Shown here piece after piece: positions 21,358-44,797 of a stretch of DNA of 64,000 bases. A program made the position numbers and the translations under genes. The notes beneath the pieces are model-generated. The model saw only the letters and a list, made by a program, of their open reading frames with translations, did not search any database and had not been told where the DNA came from. Each line of letters begins with the position of its first letter. Position 1 is the stretch's first letter. Source of the DNA: Hirudinaria manillensis (taxonomy: Eukaryota > Annelida > Clitellata > Hirudinida > Hirudinidae); NCBI GenBank assembly GCA_034509925.1, contig CM067531.1, forward strand, positions 11,087,319-11,151,318, read 5' to 3'.

Positions 21358-24300
21358 ATGTCTGGAGTCCATCGAACAACAATTACGTTCTACCTCGTGC
21401 TTAATTTCTGTCGGATCGTGGTTGCCGCTGGTTCGTTGATTTCATTTTATAAACTTTCCTTTACTGCTGACGAGAATGAGAAACGACAGCTCCCCTAAAC
21501 CTAACCCTAACCCAGCTTTTAATCTATTAATGAAATTAAATCCTTAATTTTTATTTTAATTAACATTACTTAGATTGTTCACTGTATTAAAGTATATTAT
21601 ATAGGATAATAATTCTCAAATAAATCGACGTTTTACAAAGAAAAAGCATGAATTGATACTGATTAATATATCTTTTTATATGATTTTATAGTCGATATTC
21701 TTCTACTTAATGAATTAAAATCTTGCTCAATCTCGACGTAGTTTTCTACAAAAACTAATTCCTTCTCAGATTTGCCTAAAATTGTTTCATTGCAAATCGG
21801 CTCTCCGTACATTTCTGCCTCAAAAATGATCGGAAATTTCAAAGCCACGACGTTTTCAATTGATTGTTTAATATTTGGTGAGACGACTGACGAAAAGATA
21901 ACCGCCGAAACAACATTTTTGATAAATAAAAAGGTCATAACAACATTCAAAGATGATTACCCTCTCGACAAAGTACCCTTACCCGAGTCTAATCTCAGAG
22001 AAAAAATCGGAAATAACGTTAAGTTTTACTTGAATTTTAGAAGATATATTAACGTATTATTGCTTATTAACGTCAAACTCTTTTAAAATTATCAACAGTT
22101 AACATGCCAAGTCGTACTGCAACATTCTGACGGGAGAATATCGGAGGCCTACGAAAGTGCTCCCTACTTTCTCGGAGTCTACGCTGTGGTACAGAGGGCT
22201 GTTTCATTTTTCTTTTCTTTTTCTTAAATGTCGGCCATCACGATACGCCATGAGAATTAATAACATAGTTAATAAATTATAATAAATAATTAATATTATA
22301 ATAAATAATTAATACTATAATAAATAATTAATATTATAATAAATTGTCAATTTGAAGGATTCAAACGGCATTCCCATAAAGGAAGTGGAAGTAAAACAAG
22401 GAGAAAAATTTTCATTTTCTTTGAGAAGCACTTTCCCTTTCACCACAGGGCATTGCATGGACGCCAAGAATTGCTTGGTCACAAAAGCAATGTTCGATTT
22501 GCTTCACATCAAGACCGGTGTCGTAAAAACCCATTGTCGTTTGATCTTCACCGCTCTCAACGATAGTTTAACTTACGAATCGAGCACTGTCAATATAGCT
22601 GCCCTCGTGACCCCGGGCGTTGAAGAAAGTACCCATCTGCTGGAATTTAGACAATATAAAAGCGTTTTTAGGAACATATTGATTCAGCACTATCAGATTC
22701 CTCCGATAACGGTAAATCGACTTAAAAGACCGTTTATTATTTCGATTGCGAAGGTGTCAAATGTGCTTAAATGGAAAATTCTAAACCATACGTTTGAATT
22801 AAAGGTGCGTGTGGTGGATAATGTCAAGCAGAATTCGTGCCATTCTCATGGTGACCCTCATTTCGTAACATTTAAGTAAGTCCTTTCAATTAGATTTTAT
22901 TTCATTTTATTAATATATAAAGAAAATAAACACCACAGCAACATCAAATTCTACTTCTACCGTACAAATCTTCATCAAAACAGTCACTGCCCAGCAGTGC
23001 TTTTGTATTTTTCGAATTGTTGAAATATCAAATCATTTCCATAAAATCGCCTGTCTTAATAATCACTGGGATAAGAACGAAGGCGTAGACTAAACAGATA
23101 CACGAATAACTGACACCCGAAACAACATGGATTGCTCCTTCATCGCAACAGTTCCAGATTCTAATAATTTTTTTTTGTAAGAGACTTTTAGAAGCTCTTT
23201 CACTAATTCCGATTTACTTGATTTATAGATTTGTATCTAACCATACAAAATGCTTGCACAAGACACAGTATGGCAAGAATAGTATACAATACATATTGAT
23301 CCAATCAATTGAACAGGCGAGATCGGCGAAAAAGAAGTCATGTTTAGAACACAACGTGGTTGTATGCACGTGTGGAAAATAGAATCTTACTGTTTTATCA
23401 TTTGCAATCTCAAGCAATCACAGAATATATTTAATCTCGAAGTTCATCAAATGTAAATGAACCATTTTTTAACATCATGTCGAGCTGAGACTTTTGAGAT
23501 CGGTCTGGAGACTGGAGACAGGCTAAGGCCTGTCATTAGAGGTCACGTAAAAGAGAGTTGAGTCAAAAGAAGAACAAAAACACAGAAAAGATCATTGAAT
23601 GTCCTTCTTAATTTTATAAGAAATTCATCTGAGTGGTTGTAATTTATGTAATTTATGAAGAAAATTGCTTAAATGTAACGAATTCCTCATAGAAATAACA
23701 TCGAATCGAATCTATTGATGACATCTGCCAATCTGTTGTAATTTGTTTATAATTTGTATAGCGATGTGAGATTCGACAACTATTTTGTTGGAGACTTTGA
23801 TATGCTATCAACGAAGCACAGGACGTTTCAGGTGATATTTAATATGGCCGATTAGAATTAAATAATTTCTTTAACCAAATAATATCTTGTGATTTGTTGT
23901 CTAAAAGGAAAGCTTATATTATTATTATCTTAAATAAATTAAGAACTTTAACGTGATTTTGGATAGCGAATGCTTGCATCGGTTATTTTTAGTAGGTCGA
24001 ACCAATTCGTACTAAATGCCGCACAAAATTTGTTACAACGCTTTCAAGTCTCGTAAGTCTTCGTAAGTATTATAGAGAAAGGCTTTGAAGATTGGGTCTC
24101 ATCGAGTCAGAATAGATTAAAGTATAACATTGAGGAATTAAAGTATCGCAACTAATTTGCTTCAAATACGCTATGAAGGAGCGCATCGCAGTAGGAGCTG
24201 GGGATCGCTGTTCTATTCGGTCTCGTAATTGTAGCTTCAATCGTAGCTTCAATCATAAAATGGATGTTAAAAGATTAATATAAGTTCTTCGATCATTGAC

Positions 24301-27300
24301 GTTAGGTCCAAATTCGGCAAATATATTGTCTAGGAAGCGGACCTACTTGCATCTGTGGAGTGGTAGTGAGAGAAGGTTAGCAAATTGGTCAGATCCGTTC
24401 AAATTAACTTGGCTCCAATCTAAACAGTTACTAAACAAATTTAACTTTCAATTAAATGTGTGCCGTGTCACCGCATTTATGCATTTTGATGGATTTTGAA
24501 ATTAATTTCGCAAAATGTTATACTTGTCGAATAATGACTTTCAGGAAACAGCATCTTGGGTGTTACTGCATGCGACTATAAGCCAAATTATCTAGTCGTT
24601 GAAATCATGAAAGACAATACCAACCTACCTGCCATCATCCAAATGGATAAAGAAAAATATATCGTAAGTTATACCACCCACAACATTCATCAATTCAACA
24701 GAATAACATTGATTAAGGCTTTAAAGAAATAATAAATATTTTCAATGTTCAACCACTTGAAATGCATGGAATGCACTTTTAATCATTTATTTTGAATCTT
24801 AAATAATATTTCAACATTTAGCAAAATTTCAGGTTTTAGATCTTTTCTGGCGTTAAAAGGCAGTTTAGAATATATACGAATCATCACTATTACAAATGTT
24901 TATTTTAGAATATGTTGCTGGGGCACATATAAAACATTTAGGCTGGACAAACTATTTTCTGGATCCAGGCAGACGCATTTCATGCAATAAAGACTTTAAG
25001 ACTTAAACTATTCCTTGTCATCCAGCCTTATTTTCTAAATTTATTTGCGATTATAAGCGACAAAACAAAACAGCCATTAGATAATAATTAGATAATCCAT
25101 TGGATTGTTAAACCCTGGAACTCATTACCACCTGATTTTATTAATGCTACAACCGTTTCTAGATTCAATGCACTTATAAGAGACTTTGATCTTAGCAAAT
25201 ATCTTACATATAACTAACTCTCATTGTAGTCATTATCGCCACCTTGACTCATACTGTCATTGCAATTTGTCCTTGCTCGAATTGGAAATCGAAAACTGTG
25301 TTAGTGGTCCTATTGGGCCCTTCAGTTTGAATAAATAAAAAAATAAAAAATAAATAACACCAGACCCTATCTATCTAAATCTAAATCTAAATCTAAATCT
25401 GGACCTACTTAGTAGGCAAGTTCTGAACAATCCGCAATATAAGTTTTGATTTTTTCTGTTTTAACAGATAAGGTTGATATCTGGCGTTCGAGTGGAAGCA
25501 GAACCGTACACTTTGCATGGTAAAAAGTTTTTAAATGTCTACATATTCCCTCTCAAGAGAGAAAAGTATGGAGGTGTCTGTACACTACCAGCCCCACCGC
25601 CCGACTTCAACGAATTTAGGTAGGCAATAGCTTTTGAAATATACTGGGGAAGTTGCAGACATAAGCCAATTCCTTGTTAATGTGTTTCGATTCTCGTACT
25701 TTCTCAGCGGCTTTGTCATGGCGAACAGACTTTCGAAGAGAACCCCTTAATTGTTTTGGCATAACTTTCAACACTTTAACTGATCAAAAATAAACTTTGA
25801 ATAATTATGCATTCTTTACTTTTATTTTAATAACTCAAAACTGACTTAACATTTGCGAATTCAGGGTTTCTAGTACCGATACGTTCTTTTCGAAGACGTT
25901 GCCTCAGTGCGTGGATGAAGTGTTTACCTATCCGACATGCAAGTGCACATCGCCCTCAAAAGCAAACATCACTGTCGTTTGTGGTTTTCAGGATGAAAGT
26001 GAATATGAGAATATCATTAAATTGGAAAACGTTTGCGACACCAAAGATGCTCCAAAACTGGCGAAGCGAGAAGCGGGCTCCGATGAATTACGTGGCATGG
26101 TCGAGCTCATGCAATCCAACGTTAAATCTAAAGTCGATCTTTCAGATATTTTTGGAAGCATAGATCGAAAGACTCCTTCCTCGACTCAGGTTTTAAACAA
26201 TTTCTTTAACTAGTAGAACATGACGTTGAAAATGTTATTCGTGCTTCAATTCCTGTTTAATAACAACGAATTATGTCGAATTATTGGTGGCAGTTTGTAT
26301 TTGCTGTATAATATCGAATATTAGCCGCTTGAAATGTATTTTAACTAACAACTCGTTGGATACCACAATAAATCGTATTTGAAAAACACGCCAAGAAACA
26401 AGCGACTTGAAAAAACAACCAGAACCGCACCAGGACTCGGAAACACACGAAAACTCAATCGAACTCAAAACCTGTGTTAAAACCAAAGAAAGTTAATGGA
26501 TCAAGCCAAACTCGTGCTCATTTCGCGCGGATACAATATTTTGCATCGCCAGAATTTTATTACGACATATTACCAAACCTAGATTTTTGCGTTTTGTTTA
26601 GTTCATAAGGCTTATTTGACATGAAACGCCATTTTGGTACTTCAAAACTTATATATAATTCGAGATAATTTCAATAGACTGCATTCAAATCATACTTGAT
26701 CGATCTTTGTGATATCAAGTTTAACTTTAGACAAACGATCAAATGACTTTTATCGCAGGTTAATGAGATTACAAGATTAATTGATGAGGAAACTGCTAAA
26801 AAGGAATGCGAAAGTATGTTAAAATCTTCCCAATTTTACAAGCAATGCGCTGATATTGTTGGTGATGAAACGTATAAGGAACTAATAAGTAACTGCATTG
26901 ATGATGTTGGGGTGAGCCATTTTATCCAAGAACATCTTAAACACATGTCACCCACTCATCTTCTCACCCACTCATCCACGCACCCATTCACCCACTCACT
27001 TCCGAATTCCTAGTTGATCTCCTTTATATTCTCTCAATTCAGACTTAAAATCAATTTATTTAAAAATCAATTTTATTAAATTTATTTTACTTATTATTGA
27101 ATATTATGGTAAAGTAAACGCCTTTGCTTAGTATTTCTGGAGTTCAAGGAGCTTCTATGGTTTAATCAATTACTATACATTTCAGTTTTCTGGAAGTTAT
27201 GAAGTAATTGGAAGTATCATTAAAACATTTGAAACCTCTTGCGAAATTGATGCGAATAAAGGAGTATCAATTGTCAATGGATCATCGACTGATGATAGTA

Positions 27301-30070
27301 AAAAATTTGTTGATGTGGTAAACACCATACAAAATCAATCTTGTCCTGTTTGTGCCAACAATGGAACGTGTGTAAATGGGACGTGCAAGTGTCTTCCAGG
27401 TATAAGATAGAAATGAACAAATAGTTTAAAGAATATTGATGAATGCAGATAATTTTTTTAAACTCACTAATTTTGAAATTTATTTAAAAAATAACTTGTT
27501 CAGGTTTCTCTGGACAAAACTGTGCTTATGTGAGTAGCAATCCACCCGCGATAAATTTTGTCCGAAACCTGTCAATATGTGACGTTCTTGCCGACGAATG
27601 CGACTTGATTAATTTGGAAGTACTTGTTAACCCTGATATTGAGGAATCCATGAAATGTGTGGCAGACATGGTTTTAGAGGTCAGCTTTTTTGTTCTTAAG
27701 TATGGAACATGAGATAGATAAACAGAGAGCCATGCAATGGAATTAATTCTATTTGGCAGGATGGCACAAGAGAGAATCTGATGATGAGTGATAAAAGTAT
27801 CCAGCCAGGATTTTTTCAATGTGCTCCCGATAAGCAAGCCTTTGAAAAAGCTAGGAATGAAAGGAGTAAAATGAATGTGAAGCTCTATACAGTAGTCCAA
27901 TCTGAAGGAAAAGAACTAAAAAGCAATGAATTAGATCTTTTGGTTTATGACAGCACATGTCTTTCCTGTCTGAATGAAGGATGTCCACAAAAGGTATATT
28001 TGAATTCATTAAAATATTTCAAAATTATTTCTTCTTTAACCCATGGATGTCCAAGATAAAAATTTCCTTTCAGCTAAGGAGGGAGTACAAGTATAACCCA
28101 ATACATTTGAGTGGCAACCGAAAGTTTATTAAAACTAATTTACCAGTCAATAGGCACAGATTCAGAGAATATAAAAACACACTTTTCATTAAACAACTAC
28201 CAAACACTGCCATGTCACAACGTTTACAAACAAGGAACCTCCTGTTTACTTGTGTAAGGTGTAGTGTTTTATGCCAAGAGCATAAGAGCCGTGTTTTACC
28301 ACTTTTAATTGTTTTAAAATAAGAGTTTCCCTTCTTGGAGTTTGACATCGCCTTTTGCAGAGGTTCGTGAAGACCTCTCGCATGAACTAAATTTTCCGTA
28401 AATTTTATGTGCTTGGTAATTGTGCTCGAATTTGCTCTGTTGCTTTTGTGGCCTTGCACATTTCCGATGTGGGGCCAAGTATACCGACCTATGGCAAGGT
28501 CATTTGTACAATTGCCGAGCACGTGGTGCAATCCGTCCCTGCCGTCACATTGGAGTCTGCACTTGGAGTTTTCTACTAAACCCACCCAACCAATAGGGTC
28601 GTATACCGACCTTATTGCAAAAGCCGACCGGAGCGGTAACGTCTTCCACTTCAGTTCCTCGTCTAGTCCTGGCCAACCTCTAGTCGCTTCCTTGAGTGAT
28701 CTTGATCCTGATAATAATAATAATAATAATAATAATAATTCGGTTGATTAGAGTGGCGTATGTCCGGTGGACTTCAAGGCCACTGAGGGGGATGAGGATG
28801 ACTTTCCCTGAAAAGGGAGGTCTTCAGGGCGGAGTGATAATGTACATTATGTTTTTATTACATATTCTTTTATTCAGGGCGGAGTGATAATGTACATTAT
28901 GTTTTTATTACATATTCTTTTATTCAGGGCGGAGTGATAATGTACATTATGTTTTTATTACATATTCTTTTATTTTCCCAGCCAGTCAGGGGACCCTAAA
29001 AGGGCTGCTAATATGACCAACAATATGAAGTAGGAAAAATAACAAGTGACTAATAGCCACAATATAAAATTAGATCTTTGATTGAAGTTCCATTTAACCT
29101 TTAAAATGAATATTTACATAAGTGTTCCACAGGGGAACGAGATAGTAAACAAAAAATTCCACAAAGTTAGTCTGAGACAGTTAGGAGGATATAAAGACGA
29201 AAAAACACAGGGTGAGCAAACAAAAATTTCCCCAAAGTCACATGAATTTACAGGATGAAATGGCATTTTACATGTTGTCATATGCAATGTAATGTTGCAG
29301 TTGTTATTAAAAATATTTAAAGAAGTGTTTTGTGAACGTGCGTGACCATAATTTTAGGTGCCCAATGAGAGTTACAAATACACTAAGTATTCGAATGTTC
29401 ATAAAAAAGGCGTTTACTTTTGTTTTACATGACATTATCGTAGACATATTGAAGATAATTTTCACAAAAATTCATGACAAAATTTCAAAAATTCCAGGAT
29501 TTAAAATCAAAATTTGAAATGCACTTGTATCCCCTTGAGCATCCATGGGTTAAATATGATTATGTGACTGGTGCTTACTATACTTTTAAAAAAAATAAAA
29601 AGATTAGACAAAAATGGGAATAAAAACATTAACAATGTATGAGACATTCAAGATTAAACAGGAACATCTTACCGGTTTCATTTTGTTTGTCCAGACGTAT
29701 CACCGCTTTTACATTTGCCGTTGAATTATTTCAGAAAAATACATGCCTTATTGACCAAATATGCTATAAAGCAGGACAAACTAAAGATGAAAATCTTGTC
29801 TGCGATCCAAACATTTCTCCAACTCAGTGGTCAGGGGTTAAGGAATCCCAAAGTGTGTCTGAAAAAATAGCAGGTGCACCAGCAACTAAAGCTGCTAAAA
29901 CTGCTAAAACTATCCAAACCATCAAAGCGGCAACGGCAGAAAGAAAAGAAGTTGAAGTTAAAAAAACGACAAGCGAGTCCGCACAGACAGCTGTCGTGAG
30001 TAAAACCGAGAGGGTTATGTCTCCGGATTGGGTAATTGTATTTCCCATCATTGTTTGGGTTCTTCGGTAA
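21358..30070 (+). CDS. VWDE-like secreted protein A: vWD + EGF, probable GPI anchor (15 exons, 894 aa)
   Basis: Exons: 21358-21430, 21770-22017, 22099-22188, 22358-22711, 22805-22875, 23762-23831, 24306-24375, 24545-24663, 25468-25619, 25865-26189, 26759-26911, 27186-27399, 27504-27679, 27760-27993, 29735-30070. All junctions keep frame. An N-terminal signal peptide (TFYLVLNFCRIVVAA) leads into a region shared with VWDE. The von Willebrand D domain starts at CHSHGDPHFVTF, followed by FDNYFVGDFDML and CICGVVVREG. After it come a Cys-containing helical region, an EGF-like repeat (CPVCANNGTCVNGTCKCLPG, then FSGQNC), and a tail with YDSTCLSCLNEGC and KNTCLIDQICYKAG. A Lys/Thr-rich stalk and a final hydrophobic stretch (WVIVFPIIVWVL) suggest a GPI signal or membrane anchor. 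It lacks the D8C module of the neighbouring paralogue. VWDE family membership is firm; its function is not established. Confidence 0.88.
21492..21513. repeat. Short telomere-like CCCTAA run
   Basis: CCCCTAAACCTAACCCTAAC and two more bases lie in intron 1 of VWDE-like gene A. It is an interstitial fragment of the animal telomere repeat, or chance. Confidence 0.7.
24980..25365 (+). mobile_element. Degenerate LINE 3' end in an intron of VWDE-like gene A
   Basis: A frame near 25115-25215 reads VKPWNSLPPDFINATTVSRF and continues NALIRDFDLSKYL. That is the extreme C-terminus typical of Jockey/CR1-like reverse transcriptase proteins (W-N-SLP ... V ... F ... L). A 3' untranslated end follows, closing with AATAAATAAAAAAATAAA-type tail repeats. 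No catalytic part remains. It sits in the intron between 24663 and 25468, in the host's orientation. Confidence 0.65.
25370..25400. repeat. CTAAAT hexamer run
   Basis: About five copies of TCTAAA just downstream of the LINE tail, in the same intron. Confidence 0.7.
28070..28600 (-). pseudogene. Antisense fragment of a retrotransposon reverse-transcriptase C-terminus
   Basis: An open minus-strand frame of 171 codons contains CRLQCDGRDGLHHVLGNC followed by LAIGRYTWPHIGNV. The C-x3-C-x7-H-x4-C spacing followed by a GRYTWRH-type block is typical of the zinc-knuckle-like end of LINE ORF2 proteins. No catalytic residues are present. It lies in the 1.7-kb intron of VWDE-like gene A (27994-29734), in antisense orientation. 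Confidence 0.55.
28825..28974. repeat. Three tandem 50-bp units
   Basis: Each unit begins CAGGGCGGAGTGATAATGTA and ends TATTCTTTTATT. I see no differences between units, so the duplication is recent relative to the surrounding element. Confidence 0.97.
28825..29190 (-). mobile_element. LINE 3' end with a triplicated 50-bp tail, antisense in gene A intron
   Basis: Read on the minus strand, this contains CTGTCTCAGACTAACTTTGT, CTTTTAGGGTC and GGCTGGGAAAA, in the same order as the 3' end of the LINE copy at 37450-37520 in the paralogous gene B. The copy here has about 140 extra bases between the first two blocks. It ends in three apparently identical 50-bp tail units (28825-28874, 28875-28924, 28925-28974). 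Confidence 0.7.
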
Positions 30071-31552
30071 ACGAATATTCTCCATTTTACTATCTATACC
30101 CAACTTTCTGTAATTGTTCTATTCAGAAATAAGTTTTAAATCACTTTTAATATGGTCTAATTCAAGCTCAGTCACCAAGTAATTCTGTATTGTTCACTTA
30201 AAAATCATATTCTAGTTGAATAACTTTGATGTCATAAAATTAATTAATTCCAACATTTCAACGACAAAACGTTTTTATCTTCATGAAGTTAACGAATAAA
30301 GCCATGGTAAAAACTGCCGTCTCAGCGTCAATCCTGAGGAAATGTTGCTCTAATAAGCAGATCAATTAAGATCTCAGTTTAGATTACGATTTTCTGGAGT
30401 ACTTAAGGGCTGTTCACTCAGGTTCACTCAGATGATCAGAGTGAGATGGCTATATGTCTTGCAGACAGATCCAAAACGGGCGTATATTTGATTTAACAGC
30501 TTATTAAGGTCGACAATCTAACTCAACCAAATGTGCGATCAATAAGTGCTTGGGTTTTGAATAAAAACAGTTGTACTAGTTTCCAATTCAAATATAACAT
30601 GTTTTGTTCGAAGAAATTCTTAAAGTTCCGGGCACCGTGAATTTGAGGCTAGAAATTTTGGACGCTTTTATTTTCAAGCTTCGTTTGAAGCAATCGATGT
30701 TTGCAAATTGATTCAAAAGAGCTTTGACTAGCTCCTTATTTTATTGGCTATGCTAGAGTATATCTCAAGTTGGTTTGTTGGCACTGCAACTCGAGTGGAC
30801 GTTTTGAACCAATTAATTAGTAAAAAATTGTCTTGACAAGACCCTGCTAGTTTTGACAAACTCATGTGGAAGTTGATGACACCGTGATATTATTCTTATG
30901 CAATATTTAGAATTTTGGTTATCAGAAATTTTCAGACATAAGTGTAAATAAAAAGTAAAAGAACAGTAACAGAAAGGGTCACAAGTTTTGCTGGACGAAC
31001 CAAATCAGTTAATTCTTGACATTACGAGATGAGCGCAAGTGAATTGTCCTGGGAATATAGATATTACTTTTCACCCGTTGATTCAAAAAGAAGTAGATTC
31101 AACCTTTAAAATTATTCTGCCCGGTTCTCGTCCAGTCCGTCCTTAAATTTCTCCTCTCATATTTCGTTCCAAGCCTCGCCAAAGCGATCCATCACATACT
31201 CTTCACGATTATATTGGGAATTTAAATGAACTGAAAAAAAGGTTTAAAATTGGAAAACGATTTCAACAAGTTTAATTTCACATTTACGGTTGGTAAGGCT
31301 TAAAGATTTTTTGGTTCCCATTTTGTTTTGTGCTGCCGGAGTTTTTACGTCATAATCGTTAATGTAATCGGAGCTTCCTTTTCGGAGGTAATATTTAATT
31401 TGAATTCTTTATTCGTTATTGTTATTTATATATTTATAATTCCTCATTACTTCGTTATATCTTCAGCAATATCATTCGTACGGTCCCTTTAAATTTTGAT
31501 TTTGCTTCTTTTTACTCGGATTTAACAAACTGGAAATGCGAACGTGACTGAA
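30071..31552. other. Intergenic spacer between the two VWDE-like paralogues
   Basis: About 1.5 kb of AT-rich DNA without a convincing open frame. It should hold the 3' untranslated region of gene A and the promoter of gene B. Confidence 0.6.
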
Positions 31553-34500
31553 ATGTGCCTTTTCGGAATTTTTTTGTCATTAATTTTCCTTCACTTATCA
31601 AGTTGCGAAGGTATAGCTTTGTTTTACCGCATTGATTATAATAATAGCATTGATTTATAATAATAATAATAATAATAACAACAACTGGCTGTTCGAAGAG
31701 AAATAGGATGATCAGCTGGTGCCAATCAGAAAATCTGAGAAAAAATCTGCAAGAATTTTTATAAATATTCATTTTCTAGCCATAATTTAATGGCATAATT
31801 TTGTCGGATCGAACACATTCTAAAACGGTCACTTTGCATCGTTTTAGAAAATGCAGAATGCAATAATGTGGAATACATTGGAAATCCAATAAGAGGACCA
31901 ACTCTATCCAGTGAATCTGAAGAGGACCAAAGTTGCGATACACATATTGTCAAGGGTGAGTCAAGCTACATTATAATTACTTAATTACTTAAGTGCAGAA
32001 ACGCAAGTCAAGGTCTTTGTGCATTACTTCTCTTTCCATATCCGAGTGAAACTTTTTGCGTAAATGATTCCTAATTGGTCCATAATGTCTCATCTAATGA
32101 TCTACCTCATTTAACGAGTGATTTTCACGCAAGCACACTCTCATAAACCGAGGATTCAATGAGGACAGAAGGCACCCCATAATTTTTATTATCTACTTTT
32201 TTTTTACAAACCCTCGTTACTATACCACCCTCCCTACTATGTCATACTGCCATAAAATGGCATAAAATGACGAGATGTCGAGAAATTATGGGGGTTTCTC
32301 TCATGGTTTCTGTCCGCATTATTATATCAATTATGATCTATTAAAATTCATTTAAAAAATCACTTCATTGAAGAGAGAATTTTGTTAAAACGTTTATTTT
32401 ATTTTATTTTTCTCAGTTCATCATATCAATTTCTTTGTTGCCAAAAAAATGATAGCAAATCAGGTCGTAAGTATATTTTTGTTTGCCGTCGCAATAAGTC
32501 ATTTAACGCTCCAAGGTTTTCGTCCACCAAAAGCCGACATGGCCCTAAGGTTTGCTCACCTCGAGTGTACCCAATACCAGTGGTACCTAACCCTAACCCT
32601 AACCATGTTGTAATCAATTATGTTATTATGCCAATATTTTTCATATATTTAGACAAATGGTATGATCTCGGAGGAGAAATATCACCTGACTGTCCGGATG
32701 TTGGAAAATGTAGCACAATATCAGGCATATGGTACGAAGGAGATTATCCCAAAGGTAATATGGAGTCCGGGTAATATATGTTAGATCAGATGTCGGCAAC
32801 TTCCGGCCTAACACGCCTCAAGACGATGAAACGGCCTAATGGCCAAAAACGTTTGAATTTCAAGACTAATTAATTAGTCAGAAATTCTTTCAATTATTTA
32901 TATTAATTATTTATTATAATTAATTAATTATTCAACTTTAGAAGAAATGCATTTGTAAATAAAACGATCACTGAGCATCCATCTCGTCGCCCTATTAATG
33001 TCTTAAAATTAAAATCAGTTTTCAATACAGGCGACGAATTGATAACCTCCGAAGTTTGTGGCATAGACACTGATGGAAATTGTTGTGCTTGGAAAGCATC
33101 AATTCAGATCAAAAAATGTTCCATTGGATACATTTACAAACTTGCTCCACCGACAGATTGTCCAAGGGCGTATTGCGTTGGTTCAATTCACAACTGTGGG
33201 CCAAAAGAAATTCATCATAAAAGCTCAAATACCTGCTTAGGTAACCATTCTTTCTTTTTTTTTTGAAGAATTTCTTGTTTTACAAGTTTTAGATTAATGG
33301 CATTATTATAAGCGGACACAACGCATGTTTCCTATCAATCATCTATTAAAGATTTGGACGATTTGTCCAATTTATCATTACAGTTTAAATAAATTTTCTG
33401 ATTTATCCCTTTATTACATTCCATTTTTCTTTTCTGAGAATCTTTCCTTTCATGAGATTCTCGCTCTTAAAGAATTTGTGAACAATTTAAATATACTTTC
33501 TTATAGATTTCGATCTCATTTCAGGTGCACTTATTCAAGTTTGGTCTATAAGTTAGGGTCAGATTGAGTCGCAACAAAAATTGGTTCCAACAAAAAATGG
33601 CTCTGATGACAGTTTTACTTTATGATCACATTATATTTACGCCATTATATTTTATTCTTAATAACAATAATTTGAAATTATAGAATTCATATTGCTTTAT
33701 TCCTATCATAAACGCTTAATCTATTTCCAGCATTTCCAGCTGTTCAACTTGTGACTATTGGCCAACCGTTTATTTCTGATTCGAAAATGATAGGCACATT
33801 CAAAGTCTCTGTATTCTCGATAGAGTGCAAAGTACAATTCGAAGAAACGGATATTAAAGCTATACCCTATGGAAAGCCTCAAGTTATGATAATATTCCTG
33901 TTAAACAAAGACATGCCTGGAAGATTTGTGGAAAGTTACCCTAATCACAAAGCTATAATGAACGAAACTTATTTGGTTGGACACATCGGTAAAGAGGTAA
34001 TGTGTATAAATCAAATACCTGATGTTAGTAATTTATGTAGGCGACAATGAGTAATTAATGGTTGGTACGAATCACTGGCAGATCAAATGCCAAGCTCAAT
34101 TCAGGTACGCTTTCGACGATGGATCGATTTCCCAACGAACCGAAGAACGTACCAGCACCAGCTACATGTTAGAAATATATCCCCAGGTACAACTCATATT
34201 CATTTTCAAAAAAACTCTTCAATCGTGTGCGTAACAAATTTTTAACTTATTAAAATACAGAAGTAGATACATTTTTTAAGAAAGGTTAATGCATGTAGGG
34301 TTCGACATTAGGACATCCAAGTGGAGTTCGTTTTAGACAACCCTTACTTTTTTATAAATTGGCAGTTTTGAGTCAATCGAGAATACTAGATTCTAGTAAC
34401 TAGAAGCTTCTGAACTTCAAAACTCAAAACCAAGTTGACCACTGAGAAAAGAAAAGAAAAGATCCTGTGTTGCATTGTATTTATCCGATCTAATAATGCT

Positions 34501-37500
34501 TTGTATATCCTAGCAGGATTTTAAAGCAGTTATAAATCAATCTGCATTTGCATGGCGTCCCTACCGTGATGGGGCAGCTAAGCTGTCGAATAAGACACGT
34601 ATATCGACTGTATAAACTGACAATTTCGTCATAACTTCTGCAAGCAAGAAAACTTCCCATTCCAAGTCAAATTGAATGCTTAAAACTCTAACTTACTCTT
34701 AAAAAAGTCTTTCATATTTGTTAAACTTTTAGAATATCTTTTGATAACAATTAATTATTAGTTTCCAAATTCAAATTTACAGTTAAATCGTATTGCAGGA
34801 TAAGGAAGACAATAAAATAAGTCATGTCGAAATCCAGCAAGGTGTAGCTTTCAGTATCAGTCTTAAAAGCACATTTCCACTCACTGCTGCCCATTGCCTT
34901 CATTCTGAATCGTGCTCTTTGACAAAGTTGAATTTTGAAGCTGCATTTAATACAAGCGGCATGTTACAAGATAAATGTCATTTTACATTCGATCTGTCTT
35001 CTTCTAACCAACCCTCTTCGGCCATGCGAATCATTTCAAAGACAACTCCTGGTACTGAATCGAGCAGCTATTTTTTGATCTTTAAACCATTTAAAACTGA
35101 CGTGAAAGATGTTTTATTCCAAGGACTTCAACTTAATGAAATAAAGGTAAGAATTCAAATTCAATTAATCTAGAGTTACATTTACGTTTGTGACTTAATG
35201 AGTACATGTTTTAATGTTTTTAATGTTTTAATGTGCAGGTAATCGTTCATGAACCGGAAAAAGTGCCAGTCTGCCAATCGATAGGAGCTCATTATTTTCA
35301 AACTTTCGAGTTTAGTAAAACAATCTTTAATATTAACGATTTAATCCAAATTTCAAGACAAAATTTACTCAATATTATATTATATTATATTATATTATAT
35401 TATATTATATTATATTATATTATATTATATTATATTATATTATATTATATTATATTATATTATATTATATTATATTATATTATATTATATTATATATTAT
35501 ATTATATATTATATTATATTATATTATATTATATTATATTATATTATATTATATTATATTATATTATATTATATTATATTATATTATATTATATTATATT
35601 ATATTATATTATATTATATTATATTATATTATATTATATTATATTATATTATATTATATTATATTATATTATATTATATTATATTATATTATATTATATT
35701 ATATTATATTATATTATATTATATTATATTATATTATATTATATTATATTATATTATATTATATTATATTATATTATATTATATATTCTTTTCATGTACG
35801 TTTCATTAGTGGCCTGACTTTTGATGGTTATGGTAACGGAAATTACGAATTGCTGTCAACCACTCACAGAACCATGCAGGTACCATATACAAGTATTACG
35901 TTTAAATCAGAGATCTCCATGTATCAGTCATCTTTCCGATTGCCAGATTTAACCTCTAATTGTGTTTTTTAATTTGATAATTATTGTGAATTAGTGATTC
36001 AAGCATATTGAAATAGGACTTATCAGACCCGTATCACATTCTCACTCGACTATCAGATAACGTCATCTGCTGACCAGGAAAAACTATAACAAGGCAAATT
36101 ACTGAACAACTTCTTGTATCAAATGGGACCATATTTTCCAATATAAGAACATCTCATACAAATTTATTCCATTTATACTATACGAAAAGCAAAACCAAGA
36201 AATAGCAAATCTACCAAGTATCATTCCCTATGCAGGATAAAATTAGAATACTGGAGACGATGGAAAACGACGAGAGACGAGATCTAATTAAATATAAACA
36301 AATTTAAAAGAAAACCAATAAAATATAATGAAACAAGAGCAATTGCAGACGGAACTTGCTCCGATTAAAAAGTGATAGTTTGAGTGAGTTCTACAAAGCA
36401 GTTTGAGTGGGATCCAAATCGACTTGCACAAACTTAATAGGATGCGTTCATGACTGGACCAATGTCCTCCAAGAGAAAAAGCTCGCTGATATTATTTATT
36501 TCGATTTCAAACAAGCGGTTGATTCAGTATCGCACCCCAAACTTTTTCAAAACAGAACACAAAGAGTGCAGATAAATGTCAGAACCTAGGTAGGTGCTGA
36601 GTGGAGTGTCACATGGAGGCGTACTGTTCCTCCTCTTCATCAATGATATAATCGACAACATTAAAACTGGCGTCACGACAAAAAGCTCCACTAATTCCAA
36701 CCACCATCGGGATGAAATCAATGAACTCAGCCTTCGGAGCGAAAGATGGCAACTGAGACCGGCGTCAGACAAATGTTTCACATGTTCTATTCGTAGTAGA
36801 TCCGAAAAAGATATACAAACACCTCAATACTTCATTAAAAAAATATCAACTGACACAAATTCTCTTAATAAGGGATCTCTGATTGTGCGTTGGTGAAAAA
36901 CTTAACGTTTGTCACACATATCAAAAGCCCAGTTCAAAAAGCATCCGCAAGAGCTGGCCTACTAAATCTATCATTCACCTGCAAAATTAGAATCTAATAC
37001 TAACAATGGCCTTCTGTGCATATGTCAGAGCGATTCTAGAATATTGCCCGCAGGTTTGGAGCCTATATCACAAATATTTAATAAACAACATCGATGCAGT
37101 ACAGAGAAGATTCGCCAAAGCCATCTTTAAGAAAATACAAATATTTAACAAACTTATGGGACTCCCCATATTCGAGCACCGGCGATTTGCGTTTCCTCAT
37201 TAAAACAGATATTAAATCAAAGCATATCAAATAATCAAATCCTAGATTCTTAGCTAAATTCTAGATTCAGATCCTAGTCAGCCTTTTTTTTAAGGTGAGA
37301 TCGGATGCATGTAGTTCTGATATGTTAAAGTTGCGCTTCATTAATGGAACTGCAAAGTTGTGGAAAACTCTTCCCGAGGAGGTGGCGTCGTCAGTCAACT
37401 TCTCTCGGTTTAAAACTTAAATTTCAAATATTGATCTGAACCGATTCCTAGCTGTCTCAGACTAACTTTGTCGGTCATAGTGGCTCTTTTAGGGTCTCTG

Positions 37501-40500
37501 ATTGGCTGGGAAAAGAAATGAAAATAAAATTTTTAGGCTTTATTAGGAACTTATTCTTATTTTGACCTTTTTGTCGCAGGTTCAAATTCGTCAAATTCCA
37601 TGTTTCGGGACCATCTCTTGTATTTGTGGAGTAGTGGCCAGAGAAGGCATGGAAAATTGTTGTTTTTTTTTTATTTGAATTTAATCCATTAATCATTGCT
37701 GAATCTACAGTTAATAACATGATTGGAATAAATTCTTGCGATGATAAAAGAGAACCTCTGGCAGTGGAGCTGATGAGAGACAATGTTAATGCAAGAGCCT
37801 ACGTCGTTAAGAAAAAAACGGACTTCACTGTGAGTTACTGACTTATGTCAGTCATGCAAACATGTATGTAAAATGAAGCGCTAGTATTTAAAATAAATAG
37901 TGTGATAGTATTCCGTGGTATAATGAACGTGGTGGCAAAGTAATTTATTATTTTTTAATTGGCTTAATTAGATGAATTTTGTGGCCCAATAATCACTAGG
38001 TTAAGATTAAGGTGGGTCCTTGTGGTAAGGTGGTATTGTATGAGGTTTTTAAATCCATTTATAAATGAAAAAGTAACAATTAATTGCGTCGAGCTCCATA
38101 AAGATTCCATAATTTGCACCTAGAAATATTGACAGATATGTCGAGAAGGCATTCGTTACTTGTGATGATGTGCTAAGCTTCTAAGAATCTGAATTATAAC
38201 AAAGATTTTGTCCATTAAAACAAAAATCTAAATATCTCCAATGAATTCTCTACAGAGATGTTTAAAATTTCTACGTTATATAGATTGTTCTTCCATCTGG
38301 AATAGAAATAGATGTATTGCCATATTCGATAAACAACGTGACTTATTTGAGCGTGTTCGTGCGTGGACTGAAACACGAAATGTACGGCGGTATTTGTGCA
38401 GCAAAAGCAGCTCCAGACAGTATTGCAGTTTTCAAGTTGGTTACATTTCATTTAATTAATAAAATAATAATTATTAATTAAAATGAATCGCAACTGTCGA
38501 TGAGTCAGGATTTCAAGTCTCAAAGCCTATTTCCAAAAGACTTTGCCTCCGTGCGTGAAGGAAATATTTGGCTCCCCCTTCCGTGAATGCGATCCAAAGC
38601 AAGACCCGACTTCCAGAGAACACGAAACTATCGGAGCTTTCACAGGCTTAATCAAACTGACGAACGTTTGCGATCTGGAAAGCTTCCTCGGTCATCCGGC
38701 TGAAGGTGGCGGGCATGGTGAAGTTCCAGAGTTGAAGAGTGCCAACGATGAATCTTCTCAGGGTTTTACCATCGGATATATATTTCTATCCGTCAATAGC
38801 GGCACGGACAACGTTAAGGTTTGAATTTAGCATTAAATACTCGGCGTTTCTTAAAAGAAATTAAATTTTTTTTCTAATGTCCCATCGAAAGGTTAATCCT
38901 TCAGAACATATGGATCAACAAAAAGCATCGGATCTATGTAACGAGGCTATAAAGAAATCAAGTTCTTTTATCGATTGTCAAAGCAATAGCGAAGCAATAA
39001 TCAAAAAATGCGCAGATGGCTTAAAGGTATGGGAAGCCTCCTACTCGAAGTTGATTTGTTACTTGAACGAATAATCTTATAAAATAATTTCATAAATTGT
39101 CAACTGGAGTTTTCATCGATGAAATCAAATTATAAACGATATAACGTAAAATAAAACGTAGTGAATTGCACAGAACAAAATCAGTGCATTCATTTTAGTT
39201 CAATCCCCTATAAAAGCATGTTTTTTTCTTCTATTATTATAACATTTTTTATTTTCAGCATTCCGGAAGCGTTGACGTTGTTGAGAGTTACGTGCGCACG
39301 TTTGAACACGCTTGTGTGATTAATTTAAAAAGTTCAATAGAAATCGTCAACGGTAAGTCCACTCCTAGCTCCGAAAATAGCGTGAACGCCGTCAAAAAAA
39401 TAGAAAATGGATTCTGCCCATTGTGCAAAAATAATGGAACTTGTAGCAAAGGGGCTTGTTCGTGTCTAGAAGGTTGGCAGAAAATCTGTTACTCACGAGA
39501 GTTACTAATACTTTATCTTTCCATGAACAATGTGTTGTTGTTTTTGTTTTCATGTTTCATACAGGATTTGCAGGACTTTACTGTTCGATCGATGTGGGGA
39601 AAAATCCATCAATAAATCTTGCCCACGAAAGTAACTTCTGTGATCCTTCCATGAGACCGTGTTACATGATTAATGTCGAAACGACAATCAGCGACCCGCA
39701 AGATGTCTCGACTGTCAAATGCATAGTCGCCGTTTATGGGAAGGTTAGCATTAAAGATGTACCAGCATATGAAGCAGTGGTTCTTTTTGTGTCGCACCGT
39801 ACCGGAACTGCAAATGTAGAACTTTTGAGTGCTTTTTTGAGAACGATTGATGTGTGGACGAGTAATGGTAATGCTGAAAGATTTTATTTAGCCTCGAAAC
39901 GATCTTAAAATCCATTCGTTCAAACTCTCGTCTAATATTTAAGGTCCCCAAAAGAGTCCCGGGGGTCACCATGGGACCATAACACGAATATCGGCCGAAA
40001 TTTTAAGTCAAAAAAGTCATCAAATTACATTACATAACAACATCAATACGAAGTTTTAAAAATGATTGTTTCTCCGGTTTTCCCGTCTTTTACGTCTTTA
40101 CGCTATCTTCTATGCTTTTACCCCGATGACTAAGCTTTTGAAGGACTTGCATATTTTGTAAGAATCCACCAATGTCTTAACCATTACCCACACGAGGAGT
40201 ATCCTCCGACACATCGTAAAGTTTCGTAATTCTCCATGACTCCGACGTGGCGGCACTTATCCAGTTGACTAATAACCATCCCATTATGGTTTCCTGCACT
40301 ATCAAACGGGTCGTTCTGTTACATCCACTTTGTGAATGCCAGGCTTGTCGCACTTCTTCATCTTGACATACAATACAGTCCTTTCCTAGGGTGTCTGATA
40401 TCAGCGCAAACAATGTATTCCGACTTGCTCCATGCTTTCAGGTCAGGATATACCTGGTTATATCTTCGTTTGTGTGATTAGATTTGTTCACCGCATCATT

Positions 40501-41682
40501 CAACCCTTCTCCAAGTATAAAGAAAGGTTAAACAAAAAAAGAAGAATTCTTTTGTAATCCTCCTGCCTTCCGTTGCATTTTACATTCTCCAAAGTTCGAT
40601 GATGAAATTTTTTATGTGTTTCCATGTTAATGTTTCTAGAATCGTTATTAATCAACTCTAGTTCTATTTCTTTCCTAGATCTATACTGTACTACAAGTGC
40701 AGGCTGGGCTTAGTTCATTGTAACATATTAGATGAATTTTTGCTATTAAAGTTATTAGAATTAGATAAAATATCTTACACTATTTCACACGGTATTGCTA
40801 AAAACGGTACTTTAAATGGGAATGCTTTAGAAAGTCATCTGAAAAAGCTATTTTAAAAAAAAATATTCCTGCTCTGCATCTAGTTATGAAATTTTAAGTT
40901 ATGTTTCTGGTGAACTCGATTTTTTACATATAGTCAGGTGAACTGGAAGAACTCGAGGTCATTACAAAGGAGGTCCAACCAGGATATTTGCAATGCGTTC
41001 TCGATAAGAATTTCTATGAAAAGGGCGCTGCCTCGGATAAGAAAGAATATGCTATTTACAATACTTTTTATAACGGCCAATCGACGGTGAAATCTAACGT
41101 TTTAAAGATTGTCGTGTACAATGGTACATGCCTTGATTGCCATGAAACAGCTTGTAAACCGAAAGTTAGACTTAAAACCATTTCATTCGTTCGTCATTAA
41201 AAAACTCTAAATATTTGTTATGCGCTACAGTAATAGAAAATAAATTTATAAATTATAATCCGTATTAAGCTTCAAAATGGTTTCCTGAATTGAGAATTTT
41301 TATATATATATATATACGTTTATATTTACAAAATCGTTTCGTTTGACTGGTTTTTTAGAAAAACACATGCTTCATTGAAGAGATTTGCTACGAAGCAAAT
41401 CAAGCCAAAAATGATGAGCTCTACTGTAATCCTAATCTTTCCCAAGTTCAATGGTCGAACAAAAATGGAGCTCTGACCACGGCTAAGAAACCCAATGAAA
41501 ATGAAAATAATAAAGGAAATAAGGGAGATAATAAAGGAAATAATAAAGGAAATAATAAAGGAAATAAAGCAACAATGGCACCATCGACAGTACAAGTCGG
41601 AGTGAGCAGAGCCGAAAAAGAGCAGCATTCGGTTGTCACGTCGGTCGGAATAGCCGTTGGAATGATTGGTTGGTTCATTTGA
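31553..41682 (+). CDS. VWDE-like secreted protein B: D8C + vWD + EGF, probable GPI anchor (18 exons, 1022 aa)
   Basis: Exons: 31553-31610, 31848-31955, 32653-32754, 33031-33240, 33731-33996, 34082-34186, 34799-35146, 35239-35309, 35810-35879, 37580-37646, 37711-37829, 38284-38435, 38509-38818, 38892-39026, 39259-39472, 39565-39743, 40934-41164, 41359-41682. The signal peptide is MCLFGIFLSLIFLHLSSC. Exons 2-4 encode a D8C module (CNNVEYIGNP, KCSTISGIWYEG, CCAWKASIQIKKCSIGYIY, DCPRAYC). Then come the VWDE core, a vWD domain whose GDPH is replaced (SIGAHYF), ISCICGVVAREG, an EGF-like repeat (CPLCKNNGTCSKGACSCLEG), a stalk of GNNK repeats and a hydrophobic end (VGIAVGMIGWFI). The exon-10 donor is GC rather than GT. 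Many exons equal those of gene A in length and phase, so the two are tandem duplicates. Introns hold an ATATT array and a LINE. Confidence 0.88.
32586..32604. repeat. Short telomere-like CCCTAA run
   Basis: CCTAACCCTAACCCTAACC in an intron of VWDE-like gene B, three tandem telomere-type units. Confidence 0.85.
35371..35786. repeat. ATATT pentanucleotide array, about 415 bp
   Basis: Roughly 83 copies of a 5-bp ATATT unit with one irregular patch near 35490-35515. It fills most of the 500-bp intron (35310-35809) that splits the start of the vWD domain in gene B. The corresponding intron in gene A lacks it. Its long open frame of Ile, Leu and Tyr is an artefact of the repeat. Confidence 0.97.
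36390..37520 (+). pseudogene. Decayed non-LTR retrotransposon (Jockey/CR1-like reverse transcriptase)
   Basis: Several frames, broken by shifts and stops, spell reverse-transcriptase blocks in the right order: HDWTNVLQEKKLADIIYFDF followed by KQAVDSVSHPKL; SGVSHGGVLFLLFINDI; RPASDKC; AYVRAILEYCPQVWSLYHKY and NNIDAVQRRFAKAI; LMGLPIFEHRRF; and finally LWKTLPEEV followed by FSRFK. The FADD-type catalytic block is not recognisable between the blocks. It lies in the host's orientation in the intron of gene B between 35879 and 37580. The 3' end resembles the antisense element at 28825-29190. Confidence 0.88.
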
Positions 41683-42510: not shown

Positions 42511-42891
42511 TTATTTTGACAAAATGCAGCGAATGCAAAAACAATTTGAGTGATTTGTGTTCGAATGGATCTTAGAAGTTGAAACACCGGGAAGCACGTT
42601 GTTCGGAATACGTTTTTTCATTTCATTGACGACATGTTGAAGCTCTACGATGTGTCTCCTTGCCAATTTCAAAGTGGCCACCTTCGACAATTTCGGGTTT
42701 TGTTCTTTGGAAATAGGAAGTACTTCTCGCAGTGAATCCATGGCGGAGTTCAACTCGTGCATCCTTCTTCTTTCTCTGTCGTTTAAGATGCATCTGTTGG
42801 CAGTCGAAGGACGTTTGGTGCGCTCAGTTGATTCGTCAACTCGTGGAAGTTCCTTTGATGAGCTGTCGATGCGTCTGTCCTGATCGCACAT
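42511..42891 (-). CDS. Small intronless bHLH transcription factor, Olig/Beta3-like
   Basis: A single open frame of 126 codons plus stop, starting at the only in-frame ATG (MCDQDRRIDSSSK). The frame stays open upstream without another ATG. The bHLH domain covers about residues 35-85. It has the basic region NDRERRRMHELNSAMDSLRE, with the Glu and Arg residues that contact E-boxes, then a loop and helix 2 (KLSKVATLKLARRHIVELQ) and an extension NEMKKRI. ERRRMHELN-AMD-LREV, followed by KLSK-ATL-LAR, is most like the Olig and BHLHE22/23 group of class A factors, which act in neural and sensory fate. It is very short compared with vertebrate Olig proteins, and ends in a Cys-rich tail (NCFCIRCILSK). 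Subfamily assignment is tentative. Confidence 0.85.
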   Translation of the reverse strand: MCDQDRRIDSSSKELPRVDESTERTKRPSTANRCILNDRERRRMHELNSAMDSLREVLPISKEQNPKLSKVATLKLARRHIVELQHVVNEMKKRIPNNVLPGVSTSKIHSNTNHSNCFCIRCILSK

Positions 42892-44797
42892 CGTCGAGAA
42901 ACAATCTTGGCCGAGTTTAAAGCTGATTCCATATGGATAGAATATTTTGAATAGTTTCAAATAAACAACATTTAAAAAGTCGAATGTACCTTAGGGATTT
43001 ATAAAAAATATCTGTTCATTTTCAGAGCTATTACCGAACAGAATAGTTTTGGACGATTTGTAATTCGTATTTTGATACCTAAATAACTCCATAAACCGTG
43101 TTAGGAAAAAAACCAAAGCTTTTATTATGTACTGAACGGATTATGAAAACGCCATATTTACATTAAACAAAACTTTAGGATGTGCTGGAAAATTATAAAT
43201 GGATTATAATAGTAAATAAAGATTATTACTAAAATATTCCTCGCATGCATTTTCTTTTAGTTAGTGATTTGATTGAACGACTTTAAAAAAATCAAAAGAT
43301 TATTCGTCACTAACTTGTTCCGAAGTAATAGGAAGATAAGGAAATCCTACTCATCGACGAGGTCGAGCCTTTTCCACTGAAAAACTATCGACATTTCAAT
43401 GTGAAACACGACCAGAACATTTCTAGAAATGCCAAAGACTTACGGAGTTTCACGTTCGTATCTAGGTTGTTCTAAAAATGCCGCACTTGTAATTGATTCT
43501 TGGAGCATTTAAGCAATGTCATGGTCATAAAGGGGCTTGAAAAGAAATTGTCAGCTCTTTGTGGTTTCCGGACACGAGGGGTGCAAAGGAAGTAGATTTG
43601 GTAGGGGGTGTTGTGCCATAAAACTTTCAACTACTCGAACGCCAGCAGTTTTACAAGCACATTGAAATGTTTTTCAATGGCACTAAATCTTCTAAAAACA
43701 AATTGATGATTGATTTGTGTTCGAATGTGTACCCCATGTATTGGGAATCTCTCGTTTTTCTGAAAAATTGGATGCAATGGTGACCAAAGTCTAGTTTTTC
43801 TTTACAATTCAAGGCGTTTTCATGTCTTATGATTGCCAAAAGAAAAGATGATTACAGATTATTTCAGAGAAAATACGTTGAAATCTTTGATGATGCATCT
43901 AGGATTTTATTAATGTCGTCTGTATAGTTGGATGTGTCGGACTTCCAAAGTCAAGTTGCTTTAAATATCTGGTAGCGGATGTTCCGAAGACATTACGTGA
44001 TGTAACATGTTGCATCATTTCACTGGTTGTAATGATAAACGAATTGCGTAATCACTTGGAGCTTATCTAATAATCATATGTGATAATAAAGGTCAGAGAA
44101 TAACAAGTCCTCTGACGGCAATTTCAATAAAGTTGAATTTTTCTTTCTTTACAAATTCTTACTTCCTCTGTTTTGAACTTAACGACATTTCTAATTGGTT
44201 GAGCCCTTCATGTGCATTGGATGTCGTTTGCATATTTGATTTTGAAGGGATTTATGGAAGGCTTTTGGATCGCAAGTTGCATAAAGTCATTTAAAGTATT
44301 ACTTTGAATTTGCAGTACTTATTTATCGCATAAATAAATCCAAACTATTGCTTTGTCAAGGTTATATTCTTGTCGTCTAATCAGTCATTTCACTCATCAA
44401 AGCTAAGCACACATACATGCATGCATGTAGAATCTATACATTGTAGATTTATAAGATTTCATCACCTTTATCTGAATTCGCCTCCAATTCGCCAAATTCG
44501 TGAAAATTGATTTTAAAATGCCGAAAATCTAAAGGTGCTTTGCAAATCGTGGAACTACTAAACCGTCAACAAAAGCTTTCAATCCTCTCATCGGATGTCA
44601 GACATTATTCCAATAGTTACTTGAGAAATTGTTGGCATAGAGAGAAAACCGGACCATTGATTGGTGATGTCGTGAATATAAATTAATACTTAATTTAAAA
44701 ATTACTCCTGACTAAGGTCTTGACCAGGTTGAAATAACACTTCAATCTTGCATGATTCTCAACATGAACTTATGAAATAACAAAGAAATCGACATTC
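42892..44797. other. Non-coding region upstream of the bHLH gene
   Basis: About 1.9 kb with no supported gene, RNA or repeat family. It is likely to hold the regulatory DNA of the bHLH gene and the 3' end of the EF-hand gene. Confidence 0.5.

What the first reader, a model, noticed from the sequence alone, without database searches (positions are those of the whole stretch)
21358..41682. Tandem VWDE-like paralogues that differ by one exchangeable domain module
The exons after the first few match in length and phase between the copies (71, 70, 119, 152 and 214 nt in both). Gene B has three extra exons (31848-33240, 420 nt, 140 residues) encoding a D8C module; gene A goes directly from signal peptide to core. 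Every intron around and inside the D8C block is phase 1, so it can be lost or gained without breaking the frame. This is a clear case of module loss or gain after duplication.
Basis: partly seen in the sequence, partly recalled or inferred. Interest (0 to 1): 0.75.

Follow-up and report, generated by a model that had tools for sequence, protein, structure and literature searches.

The report
Leech gene that lost one module
Two neighbouring genes for secreted or surface proteins, probably from a leech, are old copies of each other, and one has cleanly lost a three-exon domain that most of its relatives keep; it is a tidy but ordinary example of how a domain can disappear without breaking a gene.

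Summary
Gene A (21358-30070, 15 exons, 894 aa) and gene B (31553-41682, 18 exons, 1022 aa) give full-length spliced ORFs. Thirteen of 13 comparable introns share alignment column and phase. B alone has three extra exons (108+102+210 nt), bounded and split by phase-1 introns. They encode a complete D8C ('D10C') domain: ten cysteines, GP2-like spacing, matches to uromodulin and GP2.

The genome points to loss rather than gain. I found twelve related core units on three contigs. The block lies directly upstream of the core in nine. It is absent from A and from a C13 unit, g2; one unit is unresolved. Module and core identities correlate (r = 0.98), so B did not import its module recently. A and g2 do not group (AU p = 0.002): two losses. 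g2 keeps a fused scrap of the module; A keeps none detectable.

'Exchangeable' is unsupported: I saw inheritance and loss, no gain. A and B are only 35% identical, so the split is old. Assembly statistics match the leech Hirudinaria manillensis. Interest is modest. Boldest reading: complementary loss, A keeping GDPH without D10C and B the reverse.

The parts
21358..21430 (+). Gene A exon 1: start and signal peptide (MSGVHRTTITFYLVLNFCRIVVAA), ends in phase 1
21431..21769 (+). Gene A intron 1 (339 nt, phase 1), at the place where the D8C block sits in relatives; no D8C relic found; holds a telomere-like CCTAAACCTAACCCTAACC stretch at 21494-21512
21770..30070 (+). Gene A exons 2-15: core (two beta-rich regions by eye, VWD-like with GDPH, linker, one EGF-like, Cys-rich C-terminus, short hydrophobic tail)
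22805..24375 (+). Gene A exons 5-7: start of VWD-like domain, CHSHGDPHF motif kept
31553..31610 (+). Gene B exon 1: start and signal peptide (MCLFGIFLSLIFLHLSSCE), ends in phase 1
31848..31955 (+). Gene B exon 2: D8C/D10C module part 1 (Cys 1-2), phase 1-1
32653..32754 (+). Gene B exon 3: D8C/D10C module part 2 (Cys 3-4), phase 1-1
33031..33240 (+). Gene B exon 4: D8C/D10C module part 3 (Cys 5-10 plus an extra C-terminal Cys pair), phase 1-1
33731..41682 (+). Gene B exons 5-18: core, same intron positions and phases as gene A exons 2-15; VWD-like motif is GAHY, not GDPH
32586..32604 (+). Telomere-like CCTAACCCTAACCCTAACC stretch in gene B intron 2, inside the D8C block

Best explanation
A and B descend from one gene whose protein ran: signal peptide, D10C domain, core (two beta-rich regions, VWD-like domain, linker, EGF-like, Cys-rich end). 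The ancestor carried D10C on three exons between phase-1 introns. In the A lineage a genomic deletion with both breakpoints inside the flanking phase-1 introns (ancestral introns 1 and 4) removed all three exons. The signal-peptide exon then spliced straight to the ancestral core acceptor, in frame. B kept the full layout. Shown: the predicted gene structures, presence or absence of the block, its wide retention in paralogues, and a second, separate loss in unit g2. Inferred: the deletion itself, its breakpoints, and the outcome, namely that A displays the core without the D10C head.
For: Nine of 12 core units found carry the block directly upstream of the core with phase-1 introns. D8C and core identity correlate at r = 0.977 over 45 pairs, B's residuals -4.3 to +2.8 points, so B's module travelled with its core. 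All ten D10C cysteines are present in 10 of 10 modules. The unrooted core trees join A with B against the rest, 94/98 with and 96/98* without the most diverged unit; holding A and g2 together is rejected, AU p = 0.002. A's exon 2 starts where the core exon of B and of the C13 units starts, 12 residues before PYIS/PFIS. Unit g2 shows such a loss with a scar: the exon C13:5146967-5146691 (-) reads in one frame from g3 into the last piece of a D8C exon, PVICPSETIFDQDTGVCI, followed by a phase-1 donor. Vertebrate VWDE carries D10C (PMC8930769, figure legend).
Against: A, B and k1 are long branches; treekit warned that the A-B join may be false, and B+k1 (p = 0.13), A+k1 (p = 0.13) and A+B+k1 (p = 0.34) are not rejected. 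No outgroup sequence is in the tree; with the root on A's branch a gain in the others would fit. A's intron 1 has no recognisable D8C relic, so loss in A rests on comparison, not on a scar. No transcripts were available.
Confidence: 0.85

Rival explanations
1. Gain: the ancestor lacked D8C, A keeps the old state, and the block was inserted through a phase-1 intron in the line leading to B and the others.
For: Phase-1 symmetry permits gain as well as loss; the tree is unrooted and A is a long branch.
Against: Needs the root on A's branch, against the A-B clade (94/98, 96/98*). g2 would still be a loss. The vertebrate relative VWDE has D10C.
Confidence: 0.08
2. B got its D8C recently from a C13 or C7 paralogue by gene conversion or exon shuffling, after A and B had parted from a D8C-less ancestor.
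For: Phase-1 exons could be swapped in frame.
Against: B's module is 36-47% identical to the other nine, as far off as its core predicts; residuals -4.3 to +2.8 points. C13 modules are 57-81% alike among themselves apart from the near-identical h1-h3.
Confidence: 0.02
3. Gene A has a D8C block that is missing from the assembly, or used only as an alternative first exon.
For: Only one assembly was examined and there are no RNA reads.
Against: No significant D8C in the six-frame window outside B's three exons, and none elsewhere on C6 among the 20 genome matches listed. A's intron 1 is only 339 nt and has no N.
Confidence: 0.05

Closest known systems
[quoted passage not shown]
   Same: D10C domain (in B), a VWD-like region and an EGF-like region in one extracellular protein; D10C in VWDE is stated in PMC8930769 (Extended Data Fig. 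1 legend), VWD and EGF in PMC9117669 (passages seen)
   Different: No Ig_VWDE (PF25776) match in A or B; VWD and EGF scores under the cut-offs; one EGF-like unit seen; A lacks D10C; short hydrophobic C-terminal tail in A and B
Uromodulin / GP2 decoy module (D8C, redefined as D10C)
   Same: B's module aligns with UMOD (4.7e-14) and GP2 (2.3e-12) and keeps ten cysteines with almost the same spacing
   Different: An extra Cys pair follows; the asparagine sites that carry the FimH-binding glycan in UMOD (N275) and GP2 (N65) are not kept; no ZP domain among the Pfam hits of B
FCGBP/mucin-type VWD domains with GDPH
   Same: A and eight other units have GDPH at the start of the VWD-like domain; a profile of six cores hits FCGBP chains at 7.7e-08 and 8.1e-06, the best stretch only 23 positions around that motif
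   Different: B has GAHY and g4 GDPR, so Asp-Pro cleavage is not expected in B; cleavage in A is not tested
Class 1-1 (phase-1 symmetrical) modules and domain loss in tandem families, for example snake venom metalloproteinases (PMC4963849, passages seen; general model recalled)
   Same: Loss of a domain in one member of a tandem family
   Different: Here the loss in A lies wholly within introns, while the loss in g2 is a fusion through an exon

Membership tests
D8C/D10C (UMOD/GP2 decoy domain) | Curated family score | tested here: met
   PF23283 28.1 bits against a cut-off of 27 in spliced B; not found exon by exon at the window
D8C/D10C (UMOD/GP2 decoy domain) | Ten cysteines at GP2-like spacing (22,22,6,25,7,1,11,15,5) | tested here: met
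   B 25,20,6,24,8,1,11,14,5; ten cysteines in 10 of 10 modules. GP2 numbers from PMC8930769
D8C/D10C (UMOD/GP2 decoy domain) | High-mannose glycan site used as FimH decoy | tested here: not met
   UMOD N275 column is K or Q in 10 of 10 modules; no sequon at the GP2 N65 position in 10 of 10
VWDE | D10C domain | tested here: met
   Met in B only; A has none
VWDE | VWD domain | tested here: inconclusive
   A core PF00094 16.4 bits, cut-off 22.9; 4 of 6 cores match, best E 0.0089. None of 26 genome matches of PF00094 lies in these units, exon by exon
VWDE | EGF-like domain(s) | tested here: inconclusive
   EGF_Teneurin 22.2 bits in A, 19.8 in B, cut-off 24.3; EGF_2 20.5 and 16.7, cut-off 22.1
VWDE | Ig_VWDE domain (PF25776) | tested here: not met
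   The one genome match is on C9 at E 0.126, below the cut-off; none in A or B
Symmetrical 1-1 exon module | Both flanking introns in phase 1, length a multiple of 3 | tested here: met
   58 | 108,102,210 | 266; all four introns phase 1; phase-1 introns also in the paralogue models
Cleavable GDPH VWD | Asp-Pro hydrolysis at GDPH | not testable with these tools
   Motif in A and eight other units; B GAHY, g4 GDPR; D-to-A and H-to-N changes block cleavage in FCGBP (PMC10880436 section 2.4)

The most novel reading that the evidence does not exclude
A and B underwent complementary degeneration: A threw away the D10C head but kept the self-cleaving GDPH VWD site, while B kept D10C but lost GDPH (GAHY). 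Two functions once joined in one molecule, a Cys-rich binding head and a cleaved, protease-resistant VWD body, are now on separate neighbouring proteins that may act together at the same surface.
Probability: 0.15. Interest if true: 0.5.

Novelty: new member of a known kind. Interest (0 to 1): 0.32.

Why it matters
It is a clean natural example of domain loss through phase-matched introns, with a second, separate loss in the same family by another route (fusion through an exon). If the genome is a leech, it also suggests that the uromodulin-type D10C domain was joined to a VWD-like core before vertebrates arose. The complementary D10C/GDPH pattern in two neighbours gives a simple test of whether the two features were one function.

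Tried and rejected
D8C relic in A: a D8C profile HMM with B and without B on the six-frame window found nothing significant in intron 1 or upstream. Nucleotide comparison of intron 1 with B's block gave the telomere-like repeat, 36 nt at 83%, as its best match. I considered this repeat as a shared remnant or a repair scar, because it occurs at only two places in the window. I set it aside: it is a simple sequence with 5265 exact matches in the genome, telomeres included; it is absent from the fetched C13 and C7 loci (32 of 38 loci without a match, the six others from the window's own stretch); and introns of genes only 35% identical should be saturated.

A recent A/B duplication was rejected: A-B core identity (35%) is no higher than A-C13 (34-37%). 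Treating each C13 unit as its own gene was rejected for g3+g2, which read as one gene. The k2 block (C7:102.2-102.9 kb) and the k3 core (from C7:111.5 kb) could not be shown to be one gene; a PDZ-like ORF (by eye) lies between, so that unit counts neither way. In some searches this core is named 'k2' and labelled D8C-bearing, and it is paired with the k2 module; leaving it out of the tree kept the A-B clade. My first scan for signal-peptide exons covered less than 3 kb for several units, only about 230 nt for h2 and h3; I repeated it over 3 kb for all, with A and B as controls. No structure prediction was run, because the spliced proteins are not given letter for letter by contiguous DNA. Leigh 2020 on VWDE (PMC7390686) is not held, so VWDE domain order is recalled only. 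The Pfam accession PF26129 does not exist in the library. One paper holds both VWDE and D8C. A search for two of VWDE, leech, annelid found 363 papers; the 8 listed do not hold VWDE, which says nothing on the other 355.

Full report
What was claimed and whether it is there. I rebuilt both from the DNA. Gene A runs 21358-30070 in 15 exons (894 aa) and gene B 31553-41682 in 18 exons (1022 aa), both on the + strand, both without internal stops. Exon lengths 71, 70, 119, 152 and 214 are shared, as stated; the other nine shared exons differ by multiples of three. On the protein alignment 13 of 13 introns (A 2-14, B 5-17) fall in the same column and phase. I computed no probability for this agreement; for unrelated genes it would be extraordinary.

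The extra block. B exons 2-4 (108, 102, 210 nt) are each phase 1 to phase 1, so the block can be removed in frame. Spliced, it matches D8C_UMOD just above the cut-off (28.1 against 27 bits); the exon-wise genome scan with that family listed three C13 places only. It matches uromodulin and GP2 chains by sequence (4.7e-14 and 2.3e-12). The 2022 structure of GP2 redefined the domain as D10C with five disulfides (PMC8930769, passages seen). B has the ten cysteines at nearly the same spacing, plus two more. The glycan sites used by UMOD and GP2 to bind bacterial FimH are absent in 10 of 10 modules, so a decoy role of the same kind is not supported.

The family in the genome. The window lies at C6:11087319-11151318 of a 148.4-Mb assembly in 23 contigs. 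Searches with B (50 rows), with its D8C block (20 rows) and with A's core (38 rows) listed three places only: the window, contig C13 (two clusters) and the start of C7. I fetched the last two and modelled the units: A, B; g1-g5 and h1-h3 on C13; k1 and a diverged core k3 on C7. k3 was found only by the aligner within the fetched stretch, so other such distant cores may have been missed elsewhere. The block lies directly upstream of the core, in the same exon order with phase-1 introns, in nine units (B, g1, g3, g4, g5, h1, h2, h3, k1); h1-h3 are near-identical copies (94-96% in the core). It is absent in A and g2. For k3 a block (k2) lies 8.7 kb upstream with another ORF between, unresolved. 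A hydrophobic start exon with a phase-1 donor was found by a simple rule within 3 kb of the block in g1, g3, g4, g5, h1, k1 and k2; not in h3, and only an implausible one in h2 (the rule recovers the A and B exons).

Loss rather than gain. Across 45 pairs of modules D8C identity tracks core identity (r = 0.977), and B lies on the line; the pairs are not independent. B's module has therefore travelled with its core. The unrooted core tree puts A with B (94/98; 96/98* without the most diverged unit) and rejects A plus g2 as a clade (AU p = 0.002), so absence arose twice. Cautions: A, B and k1 are long branches, treekit warns of a possible false join of A and B, other placements with k1 are not rejected (p 0.13, 0.13, 0.34), and no outgroup is in the tree. 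The outside evidence is that vertebrate VWDE contains D10C (legend of Extended Data Fig. 1 in PMC8930769).

How the module went. In A the signal-peptide exon joins the core at the ancestral core acceptor: the core exon begins 12 residues before PYIS/PFIS in A, B and the C13 units. The simplest event is one deletion from ancestral intron 1 to ancestral intron 4, leaving the 339-nt intron 1 of A. A model built without B would have recognised relics of the second or third D8C exon; none were found on the + strand at 18-31.5 kb (best E 11). A relic of the first, short exon could be missed (E 0.16 for B's own). The g2 loss took another path. The exon C13:5146967-5146691 (minus strand) reads in one open frame from the end of unit g3 into a D8C scrap, PVICPSETIFDQDTGVCI, then a phase-1 donor, then the g2 core. 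That fuses g3 and g2 into one gene and removes the ten-cysteine domain of g2; no convincing signal-peptide exon for g2 was found within 3 kb.

What the proteins may do. Both have signal-like N-termini and short hydrophobic C-terminal tails, which suggests a GPI anchor; I ran no predictor. The VWD-like region is recognised only weakly, not at all in an exon-wise genome scan, and by profile in FCGBP over 23 positions. A and eight other units keep GDPH; B has GAHY, g4 has GDPR, and the diverged C7 core has lost it. In FCGBP the Asp-Pro bond of GDPH cleaves itself, which makes the domain more resistant to protease, and changing Asp to Ala or Asn, or His to Asn, prevents or inhibits cleavage (PMC10880436, abstract and sections 2.4 and 2.7 read). 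A is thus predicted to be cleaved and B not. This gives the boldest reading: the two neighbours have lost complementary features. Against it, GDPH is also changed in g4, which keeps D10C, and g2 lacks D10C but keeps GDPH; the pattern could be coincidence.

Which animal. Hox-type homeodomains are scattered over several contigs and potato-inhibitor-I family (eglin-type, recalled) genes give 15 matches, most of them clustered on C2. The Asian buffalo leech assembly has 13 chromosomes of 14.76-8.30 Mb (147.43 Mb), nine small scaffolds and a mitochondrial genome (PMC10671345, passages seen). G000 has 23 contigs, 148.43 Mb, and C13 is 8,303,845 bases. I infer Hirudinaria manillensis or a very close assembly; no tool named it.

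Verdict. The mechanism is of a known kind, that of phase-1 modules (recalled; Patthy 1996 appears in a reference list seen).

Noticed in passing
L025 6691-6967 (C13:5146691-5146967, minus strand): Units g3 and g2 appear fused into one gene; a scrap of a D8C exon (PVICPSETIFDQDTGVCI) remains at the junction, in one open frame.
   Followed up: yes
window 21494-21512 and 32586-32604: The only two telomere-like CCTAACCCTAACC places in the window lie in A intron 1 and in B intron 2 inside the D8C block, same orientation.
   Followed up: partly
window 22805-22875 and 35239-35309: VWD motif is GDPH in A but GAHY in B; g4 on C13 has GDPR.
   Followed up: partly
C13:5494571-5508439 (L029-L031): Three tandem units h1-h3 are 94-96% identical in the core; h1 and h2 end in a stop shortly before the next unit, and no plausible signal-peptide exon was found within 3 kb of h2 or h3.
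   Followed up: partly
C13 units (L024-L031): No match to the EGF-like and C-terminal parts of A or B was listed on the fetched C13 stretches; h1, h2 and g5 read into a similar ...KPWE... tail.
   Followed up: no
C7:102203-115700 (L033-L035): A D8C block and a diverged core with EGF-like exon are separated by 8.7 kb holding another long ORF (PDZ-like by eye).
   Followed up: partly
window 36407-37420: Broken reverse-transcriptase-like (LINE-type, by eye) fragment in B intron 9.
   Followed up: no
window 28823-28974 and 35372-35784: Three perfect 50-bp tandem copies in A intron 14; about 83 copies of ATATT in B intron 8.
   Followed up: no
window 37647-37659: B intron 10 begins with GC, or with a GT 12 nt later that would add four residues in frame.
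   Followed up: no
window 2477-3070 (+), 42511-42960 (-), 59828-60388 (+): Neighbouring ORFs: C2H2 zinc fingers, a bHLH protein, a SKICH domain.
   Followed up: no
genome contigs C2, C4, C9, C10, C12, C13: The 11 best full-length Antp-class homeodomain matches (78-92% identical to the fly type) are scattered over six contigs.
   Followed up: no
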